Of a stretch of 64,000 bases of DNA, positions 52,706-53,402 are shown piece after piece; position 1 is the first letter of the stretch, and every line of letters begins with the position of its first letter. The notes under the pieces were generated by a model, which saw only the letters and a program-made list of their open reading frames with translations, was not told the origin of the DNA and made no database searches. The stretch is from a virus, in IMG/VR virus record IMGVR_UViG_3300047444_000299, positions 119,071-183,070 of that record. One strand, given 5' to 3'. The position numbers and the translations under genes were made by a program.

Positions 52706-52781
52706 GCAGTCTTAGCCAAGTTGGTAAGGCAGGCGATTCTAAATCCCCTATGCACGGGTTCGAGTCCCGTAGACTGCACCA
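52706..52781 (+). tRNA. Predicted amber suppressor tRNA (CTA)
   Basis: Acceptor GCAGTCT/AGACTGC, D-arm GCC/GGC, anticodon stem GGCGA/TCCCC (one C-C mismatch), loop TTCTAAA with T33 and anticodon CTA, T-arm ACGGG/CCCGT, CCA. Would read UAG. Amino acid unknown. Confidence 0.72.
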
Positions 52782-52795
52782 AATTTGAGAGAACT

Positions 52796-53068
52796 ATGAA
52801 CGAATCGGATTTTAAATCATCGTTAGCCGCTACATTGATATCCCGTTCTGGGAACCGGTTTGTGGTTAGCTCGAATGATAGGGCTGTATCGTTCTATACT
52901 GTTACCGAATGCTTTGTTGAATTCTATTTTGTCGATCCTACTAGATTGGCAGCCGGGTTCAACCCAATTCGACTAAATTATGGTCAAATCACATACCTGA
53001 TTCTAAACCCGGACAAAAGAACATTCCCCGATGGGATTAGTATCAGCGTCCCTTATCATTATTGGTAA
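52796..53068 (+). CDS. Hypothetical protein
   Basis: 90 aa, beta-rich (SRSGNRFVVSSNDRAVSFYT; TECFVEFYFVDPTRL). Short GAGAGAA ribosome site behind the suppressor tRNA. No family recognised. Confidence 0.65.
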   Translation: MNESDFKSSLAATLISRSGNRFVVSSNDRAVSFYTVTECFVEFYFVDPTRLAAGFNPIRLNYGQITYLILNPDKRTFPDGISISVPYHYW

Positions 53069-53072
53069 AATC

Positions 53073-53402
53073 ATGAAAGAATAGAAAGTAAGCTGTAATT
53101 GCAAATCATCCGATTTAGTCTATGGAATATTTGACCCAAAGACCAATAAATTGCATCGGGTTTCATTCAGTCGTAGTTTGATGGAATGGATTGTCGAGAA
53201 ATACTTTCCCGAAATGGAATGTATCAAAATGCAATTTACCAGAGGTTTGAAATTAAATGGTGGAACATCCCGTGGCGCGTATGCTATCGTAGGCAGCTCC
53301 AAGGACGTGGTATTGCGTGTAGCCCTGAGAAAAGAGCTGGCGGATATCTACACCGATAATGTTTACCGACACCAAGAAGAAATCTTCTTGGAACGAATTT
53401 GA
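53073..53402 (+). CDS. Gene with in-frame TAG at codon 4 (suppression candidate)
   Basis: Reads ATG AAA GAA TAG and continues in frame with protein-like sequence KVSCNCKSSDLVYGIFDP then KLHRVSFSRSLMEWIVEKYF to a TGA at 53402. Without suppression the first usable start would be TTG 53151, which discards 26 plausible residues including a CxC. The UAG-reading tRNA gene lies about 290 bp upstream. Ribosome site before 53073 is weak. Function unknown. Confidence 0.55.

What the first reader, a model, noticed from the sequence alone, without database searches (positions are those of the whole stretch)
52706..53402. Amber suppressor tRNA next to a gene with an in-frame TAG at codon 4
Seen: tRNA 52706-52781 has a standard 7-nt loop TTCTAAA with anticodon CTA. 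About 290 bp downstream, ATG AAA GAA TAG opens a frame that stays open for 109 codons, and the codons right after TAG read as plausible protein (KVSCNCKSSDLVYG). Other genes here end mostly in TAA or TGA, with TAG at the ends of only a few small ORFs (35176, 48373, 45715). Inference: the suppressor gates expression of this gene, giving a local switch rather than genome-wide recoding.
Basis: partly seen in the sequence, partly recalled or inferred. Interest (0 to 1): 0.8.

Follow-up and report, generated by a model that had tools for sequence, protein, structure and literature searches.

The report
Phage genes locked by early amber codons
This virus of bacteria keeps a stop codon at the fourth position of a small gene, and beside it a tRNA that can read that stop; the same pairing recurs in many unrelated phages, which suggests that they use a private tRNA as a key to switch on chosen genes.

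Summary
The window is from a T4-like phage record. A canonical CTA-anticodon tRNA (52706-52781) lies 291 nt upstream of ATG AAA GAA TAG (53073-53084), whose frame runs to TGA at 53400-53402.

Homologues settle the main doubt. Of 29 loci carrying this gene (Pseudomonas-, Acinetobacter-, Klebsiella-, Alishewanella-, Synechococcus-phage and metagenomic relatives, down to about 31% identity), 26 have TAG at codon 3-7, and 25 of those 26 carry a CTA tRNA in the fetched DNA. None of the three without TAG does. Four tRNA-array phages lacking the gene lack the tRNA. The segment between TAG and the next conserved ATG is under purifying selection (pN/pS 0.14-0.18), so it is translated. TAG still ends 10 of 204 ORFs in the record, so this is not genome-wide recoding.

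The arrangement also recurs in unrelated proteins: one family has an early TAG in 80 of 80 IMG/VR loci (CTA tRNA within about 4 kb in 66); another in 9-10 of 13, and in phage XacN1, whose authors could not find targets for its CUA tRNAs.

Best reading: suppressor-tRNA-gated genes. Readthrough, charging, regulation and protein function are not shown here.

The parts
52706..52781 (+). Amber-suppressor-type tRNA gene, anticodon CTA (52739-52741), encoded CCA end
   Evidence: ARAGORN; Rfam RF00005 63.1 bits; CTA tRNA at the same place in Milchi and Astolliot
52796..53068 (+). Small ORF (90 aa) between tRNA and the gated gene; its TAA ends 4 nt before the gated gene's ATG, so coupled translation is possible (inference)
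   Evidence: sequence; no Pfam or PHROGs family; in Milchi and Astolliot the upstream stop overlaps the ATG as TAATG
53073..53402 (+). Amber-gated gene: ATG AAA GAA TAG + 105 sense codons + TGA; small two-Cys protein, predicted as two beta-beta-alpha-beta repeats
   Evidence: homologues; selection; model
53082..53084 (+). In-frame TAG at codon 4
   Evidence: TAG kept in 26 of 29 homologous loci
53415..53846 (+). Downstream ORF, 143 aa, with a weak match to the ribosomal L7/L12 C-terminal domain; neighbour, role unknown
   Evidence: Pfam PF00542 E 0.00027, 21.6 bits against cut-off 25.9
53857..53930 (+). tRNA-Cys (GCA) closing the same interval; also follows the gene in Milchi and Astolliot

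Best explanation
The phage has a suppressor-tRNA-gated gene. Ribosomes start at the ATG at 53073 and meet UAG at codon 4. With host RF1 alone they end a three-residue peptide. Once the phage's own CUA-anticodon tRNA has been made, processed and charged, some ribosomes insert an amino acid at UAG and make the full protein of about 109 residues. SHOWN here (sequence level): both parts exist, are conserved together across distant phages, and the codons after the TAG are under protein-level selection. INFERRED: that the tRNA is charged and reads this UAG, and that the point is conditional expression (a lock opened only in an infected cell with a working phage tRNA supply, perhaps also a read-out of RF1 against suppressor-tRNA levels). 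The inserted amino acid probably matters little, because the amber lies in the predicted disordered N-terminus and the tRNA bodies differ widely (inference). The protein's own function is unknown; a role in translation or tRNA biology is a guess from its place in tRNA arrays.
For: (1) TAG at codon 3-7 in 26 of 29 loci; CTA tRNA in the fetched DNA of 25 of these 26; 0 of the 3 non-TAG loci have a CTA tRNA. (2) 0 of 4 tRNA-array phages without the gene have a CTA tRNA in the stretches read. (3) pN/pS between TAG and the next conserved ATG is 0.138 (7 Pseudomonas-type genes) and 0.183 (10 Acinetobacter-type), like the rest of the gene, 0.145 and 0.177. (4) In L045 and BUCT-ZZ01 the first possible start after the TAG is 65 and 48 codons in, too late for an intact domain. 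(5) Most non-Pseudomonas members have a purine-rich ribosome-site-like stretch before the ATG (by eye). (6) TAG is a rare terminator here, 10 of 204, yet it is the stop in 26 of the 27 genes that have an ATG followed by an early in-frame stop. (7) An unrelated family has an early TAG in 80 of 80 loci, 51 distinct genes, SD-like site before the ATG in 49 of 51, pN/pS 0.081 just after the stop, with TAG ending only 18 of 390 ORFs there.
Against: No protein, charging or expression data. Slickus01 (complete, 141,644 b) has the TAG but no CTA tRNA by ARAGORN, nor in the Rfam alignments shown. L020 has no stop (though its contig carries a TTA-anticodon tRNA), L014 has TAA with no suppressor tRNA in its 34-kb contig, and Mx1 has no in-frame ATG-plus-TAG and no CTA tRNA. 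In the window itself no clear Shine-Dalgarno site precedes the ATG. CTA tRNAs are commoner than this gene: only 2 of 80 pattern-sampled loci carry it. In family F3, ME3, pT24 and Arash have a CTA tRNA but no TAG in the gene. The close groups share descent, so the 29 loci are not independent; several are near-duplicates (such as L012/L013, L016/L017, KARL-1/L043, AbTZA1/L047).
Confidence: 0.82

Rival explanations
1. Termination-reinitiation: ATG-x-x-TAG is a mini-cistron, and the real protein starts at a near-cognate or later codon after the stop.
For: Annotated starts lie downstream. In family F2 the codon after TAG is ATT in 47 of 51 genes, and AUU can act as a start in rare cases (recalled).
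Against: Reinitiation does not care which stop is used, yet the rarest one, TAG, is found in 26 of 29 and 80 of 80 loci with CTA tRNAs beside most of them. In the window family the next codon is AAA, AAC, AAT, ACT, GAC, ATT, ATC or GTT, and selection is as strong just after the TAG as later. L045 and BUCT-ZZ01 have no standard start nearby.
Confidence: 0.07
2. The CTA tRNA serves a general purpose (ongoing recoding, or lengthening host proteins as an anti-host measure); the amber gene only tolerates its stop because the tRNA is there.
For: CTA tRNAs occur in many phages without this gene. Yutin et al. propose an anti-host role for suppressors (PMC7886860, passages read).
Against: It does not explain why one site close behind the start keeps TAG over deep divergence while no other conserved in-frame TAG was found in the record, nor why unrelated families show TAG near codons 3-4.
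Confidence: 0.1
3. A decaying gene or sequencing error.
For: A stop at codon 4 in a single genome would look like this.
Against: The same TAG in 26 of 29 loci from separate isolates and metagenomes, pN/pS 0.14-0.18.
Confidence: 0.01

Closest known systems
Stop-codon reassignment in crAss-like and related phages (TAG read by phage Sup-CTA tRNA, code 15)
   Same: Phage-encoded CTA suppressor tRNA reading UAG in phage genes (PMC7886860 and PMC11210395, passages read)
   Different: There TAG is spread through many, mostly late, genes; here TAG remains a terminator and a single early codon of a single small gene is concerned
Programmed stop-codon readthrough / nonsense suppression (recalled)
   Same: A product depends on decoding a stop as sense, in competition with a release factor
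   Different: The decoder is a dedicated phage tRNA encoded next to the gene; the stop is at codon 3-7 rather than between two domains
RF2 (prfB) autoregulation by an early in-frame UGA (recalled)
   Same: An early in-frame stop can make expression report on termination efficiency
   Different: No frameshift is needed; a tRNA rather than +1 shifting would pass the stop; the gene does not look like a release factor
Orphan suppressor tRNAs of tRNA-rich phages, e.g. XacN1, RsoM2USA
   Same: CUA tRNA in a tRNA-rich phage; the XacN1 authors could not identify target genes (PMC5852040, passage read; RsoM2USA PMC8504454, passage read)
   Different: Here a specific conserved target is identified, and XacN1 itself carries ATG AAG TAG at the head of its F3-family gene

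Membership tests
Phage genome-wide TAG reassignment (code 15) | Phage CTA suppressor tRNA | tested here: met
Phage genome-wide TAG reassignment (code 15) | In-frame TAG in many genes | tested here: not met
   No other convincing conserved in-frame TAG in the record; the 9 others checked lie over long ORFs in another frame
Phage genome-wide TAG reassignment (code 15) | TAG lost as terminator | tested here: not met
   10 of 204 ORFs of 100 aa or more end in TAG
Suppressor-tRNA-gated gene (proposed) | Early in-frame TAG conserved in homologues | tested here: met
   26 of 29 loci
Suppressor-tRNA-gated gene (proposed) | CTA tRNA encoded with the gene | tested here: met
   25 of 26 TAG loci; exception Slickus01
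Suppressor-tRNA-gated gene (proposed) | Translation across the TAG | tested here: met
   Selection only, pN/pS 0.14-0.18; no peptide data
Suppressor-tRNA-gated gene (proposed) | tRNA is charged and decodes UAG in the host | not testable with these tools
   needs a charging assay or reporter
Programmed readthrough with cis-acting stimulator | Leaky 3' context or structure | tested here: inconclusive
   Base after the stop is A in 18 and G in 4 of 22 genes tabulated; no structure tested
prfB-type autoregulatory frameshift | Frame change at the stop | tested here: not met
   ATG and post-TAG codons share one frame in 26 of 29 loci; Mx1 unresolved
Pyrrolysine insertion | PylRS gene and Pyl-type tRNA | not tested
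   ARAGORN's 'tRNA-Pyl' label only reflects the CTA anticodon; PylRS was not searched for

The most novel reading that the evidence does not exclude
Large phages share a general control layer: a private amber-suppressor tRNA acts as a key for a small set of genes that carry TAG close behind their start codon. It has arisen in several unrelated gene families (the window's two-repeat protein; the IEYAC family F2; the HD-like family F3; single cases with a PD-(D/E)XK domain and a hydrolase-like protein), so it is a regulon-like 'amber lock' and not a property of one gene. This would explain what many orphan phage suppressor tRNAs are for.
Probability: 0.6. Interest if true: 0.95.

Novelty: new variant of a known kind. 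Interest (0 to 1): 0.88.

Why it matters
Many phages carry suppressor tRNAs without a known purpose; the XacN1 authors state that they could not find targets (PMC5852040). Here is a conserved, specific, testable target gene, present in dozens of isolated phages (70 records hit), and signs that the arrangement is widespread. If right, gene callers have truncated or missed a class of phage genes, and phages have a translation-level lock in which a tRNA is the key. The lock would keep a gene silent outside an infected cell, and could sense the state of the tRNA pool or of termination.

Tried and rejected
Rejected: genome-wide recoding; decaying gene; RF-1-domain neighbour as constant partner (found in 2 of 15 genomes searched, only KARL-1 over the cut-off). 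Fold: AF2 model of the window protein (13 sequences, mean pLDDT 85.1, pTM 0.71) had no Foldseek PDB match below E 0.32, best VIA-align Z 3.1 over 37 residues; in BFVD the best matches were an 80-aa unnamed viral protein (E 1.8e-4), a RaK2 protein (E 2.5e-4) and a ctNQV2 protein (E 7.4e-3), all uncharacterised; so no function from structure. No Pfam family and only a weak PHROGs hit, phrog_29342 E 0.0044. tRNA bodies: similarity of CTA tRNAs among 10 Acinetobacter-type loci (mean 63.9%) is only a little below other isoacceptors (67-73%), so I make no claim of faster turnover. An odd tRNA-like stretch just upstream of the Slickus01 gene (L015:11850-11920) does not fold clearly better than shuffles (z -0.73), so I do not call it the missing tRNA. 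A relative in bacterial genomes: one 20-residue hit in an Okeania MAG contig, taken as chance. First genome screen for other in-frame TAGs was flawed: its overlap filter dropped the target itself; replaced. The first all-genome screen was swamped by antisense frames. One search failed and was rerun. Early-stop scan near CTA tRNAs: TAG 11, TGA 2, TAA 2 in 1.05 Mb against TAG 4, TAA 4, TGA 3 in 1.39 Mb of other phage DNA; of the 11, two are this family, four the IEYAC family (three near-identical), one (L122) overlaps a tRNA-Met and is an artefact; the 4 control TAG hits were not itemised and the control DNA includes genomes with this gene. Novelty searches: (open-access PMC only) listed no paper whose title or shown abstract describes an early-amber gene paired with a phage suppressor tRNA; of the papers opened I read passages, not whole texts.

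Full report
WHAT IS THERE. The window is bases 119071-183070 of a 183,070-base virus record. Its DNA polymerase is 73% identical to those of Pseudomonas phages Milchi and Astolliot, far above the next, T4-like, relatives. It has a tRNA array of 27 ARAGORN genes. The tRNA at 52706-52781 is a well-formed tRNA with anticodon CTA. Downstream by 291 nt, ATG AAA GAA TAG at 53073-53084 opens a frame that runs through 105 further sense codons to TGA at 53400-53402.

THE TAG IS CONSERVED. Milchi has ATG AAC GAA TAG and Astolliot ATG AAA GAA TAG at the same place, with a CTA tRNA in the same position 269 nt upstream. I collected 29 loci with the gene: the window, Milchi, Astolliot, IMG/VR L011-L014, L018-L021 and L043-L047, and phages Slickus01, phi1_175008, KP13-26, BUCT-ZZ01, Mx1, KARL-1, AciJM_313, Acj9, PhT2, ZZ1, AbTZA1, AB1I1M-1 and AB-Navy71. 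The tblastn search with the KARL-1 protein hit 70 records; I examined only the listed representatives, so most Acinetobacter records were not read. Of the 29, 26 have TAG in frame at codon 3, 4, 6 or 7; L014 has TAA at codon 4; L020 has no stop; Mx1 has no in-frame ATG before the homology and a TGA just upstream. Protein identity to the window falls to about 31%. Several loci are near-duplicates and the close groups share descent, so 29 is not a number of independent events.

THE TRNA GOES WITH IT. Of the 26 TAG loci, 25 have a CTA tRNA on the same strand in the fetched DNA: 15-1884 nt upstream of the ATG, or just after the gene (phi1_175008, KP13-26 and L021). The exception is Slickus01: none in the complete genome by ARAGORN, and no CTA tRNA in the Rfam alignments shown for the array. 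None of the three non-TAG loci has one; Mx1 was checked whole, L014 in its 34-kb contig, where the gene lies a few hundred nt from the contig's end, and L020 in its 16.7-kb contig, which instead carries a TTA-anticodon tRNA. As a control, four tRNA-array phages in which the profile found no copy of the gene (Acj61, 133, S-CBWM1, VCM; 14, 16, 36 and 17 tRNAs in the stretches read) have no CTA tRNA there.

THE FRAME IS TRANSLATED ACROSS THE TAG. Between the TAG and the next conserved ATG, pN/pS is 0.138 in 7 Pseudomonas-type and 0.183 in 10 Acinetobacter-type genes, like the rest of the gene (0.145, 0.177). L045 and BUCT-ZZ01 have no ATG, GTG or TTG for 64 and 47 codons after the stop. Two cysteines close behind the TAG are invariant in the 24-sequence alignment. 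Against this, annotated genes start downstream of the TAG in the annotated records that I read for this point, as they must for a standard gene caller.

IT IS LOCAL. Mechanical ORFs of 100 aa or more end in TAG in 10 of 204 cases in the record, 8 of 195 in Milchi, 14 of 183 in Astolliot, 9 of 175 in KARL-1, 18 of 166 in phi1_175008, 10 of 156 in BUCT-ZZ01 and 18 of 154 in Slickus01; Mx1, which lacks the tRNA, has 62 of 169. In the comparison of the record with Milchi and Astolliot, the target stands out with 81% identity over 105 codons and 24, 13 and 51 differences at codon positions 1, 2 and 3. The 9 other TAG cases that I checked lie over ORFs of 271-1131 aa in another frame.

THE PROTEIN. 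It has no Pfam family and one weak PHROGs hit. An AlphaFold2 model (13 sequences, TAG read as Q) has mean pLDDT 85.1; residues 1-12, with the amber residue, are of very low confidence and are followed by two beta-beta-alpha-beta units. No solved structure matches. Function remains unknown.

A WIDER PATTERN. Scanning the CTA-tRNA sample for a ribosome-site-like motif, ATG, 1-6 codons, a stop and at least 80 open codons without a start in the first 12 gave TAG 11, TGA 2, TAA 2 (caveats under Tried and rejected). One hit led to a family unrelated to the window's (F2, '...IEYACKDV...'). Of 233 relatives found, the 80 kept all have an early TAG, 78 by the strict rule and 2 at codon 10; 66 have a CTA tRNA inside the fetched 4-kb flanks. 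De-replicated to 51 genes, the amber is at codon 3 in 38 (counted from the nearest ATG), an SD-like site precedes the ATG in 49, pN/pS over the first 12 codons after the stop is 0.081, and only 18 of 390 ORFs of 120 aa or more in these loci end in TAG. Rhizobium phage RHph_I1_18 has the F2 gene as ATG AGT GAG TTC ATG TAG with a CTA tRNA right behind it; Agrobacterium phage Atu_ph07, whose suppressor is UCA according to its paper (PMC6102473, passage read), has the F2 domain without a TAG. A third family (F3, HD-like by eye; phrog_14850) has an early TAG in 9 of 13 IMG/VR loci by the strict rule, 10 with L318 at codon 12, and a CTA tRNA in 11 of 13. In GAP32, CBB and XbC2 the F3 gene is cut by a conserved TAG at codon 47, annotated as separate genes, with a CTA tRNA 2.8-3.7 kb from the gene's start. 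ME3, pT24 and Arash have a CTA tRNA but no TAG in F3. XacN1 has ATG AAG TAG ahead of F3, though an ATG also follows a few codons after the TAG. Its authors reported two CUA suppressor tRNAs and no identifiable targets (PMC5852040, passage read); RsoM2USA's authors name no specific target in the passage read (PMC8504454).

MECHANISM. The best-supported reading is that the phage's CUA tRNA lets ribosomes pass the early UAG in competition with RF1, so the gene is largely silent without it. Why this is kept is inference: a lock that delays the gene until the tRNA is made and charged, or a gauge of termination against suppression. Reinitiation is the chief rival, but it would not prefer the rarest stop codon nor travel with a CTA tRNA.

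VERDICT. The elements (nonsense suppression, phage suppressor tRNAs) are known. A dedicated tRNA paired with an early amber in chosen genes, without recoding, I did not find described in the searches listed under Tried and rejected (open-access papers only).

Noticed in passing
window 51900-52640: Several tRNA-like pieces (T-arm and CCA-like ends) that neither ARAGORN nor Rfam accepts as tRNAs; they look like tRNA relics or unusual tRNAs.
   Followed up: no
window 43755-43831: tRNA called with a four-base anticodon (cgaa), i.e. an enlarged anticodon loop; a possible frameshift-suppressor-type tRNA.
   Followed up: no
window 53415-53846: ORF with a weak ribosomal L7/L12 C-terminal-domain match next to the amber gene.
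   Followed up: no
window 51139-51639: Anti-CBASS protein Acb1 family (Pfam PF23474, E 2.2e-34) beside a metallophosphoesterase ORF at 50251-51138.
   Followed up: no
window 37226-38626: 466-aa ORF with DUF7788 and DUF2828.
   Followed up: no
L022:8495-8791: Synechococcus phage BUCT-ZZ01 encodes a permuted tmRNA (Rfam RF04321, 111.9 bits) just behind the amber gene.
   Followed up: partly
L020:4186-4260: Ochre-type tRNA (anticodon TTA) in a contig whose copy of the gene has no early stop.
   Followed up: partly
L014:9989-10336: Copy of the gene with TAA instead of TAG at codon 4; the contig ends soon after the gene, so a TTA tRNA could be missing from view.
   Followed up: partly
L023:7960-8327: Myxococcus phage Mx1: gene without in-frame ATG; an out-of-frame ATG runs into TAG, and a TGA sits in frame; annotated peptidyl-tRNA hydrolase directly upstream.
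   Followed up: partly
L231-L310: Unrelated gene family with an early in-frame TAG in 80 of 80 loci, usually beside a CTA tRNA.
   Followed up: yes
L325:3998-4564, L326:3998-4564, L327:3998-4564: In GAP32, CBB and XbC2 one gene is split in annotation by a conserved in-frame TAG at codon 47; a CTA tRNA lies further downstream.
   Followed up: partly
L324:2501-3037: XacN1 gene with ATG AAG TAG at its head, a candidate target of the phage's two CUA suppressor tRNAs.
   Followed up: partly
L202:852-1232 (- strand): PD-(D/E)XK endonuclease-like gene with TAG at codon 3, about 370 nt downstream of a CTA tRNA.
   Followed up: partly
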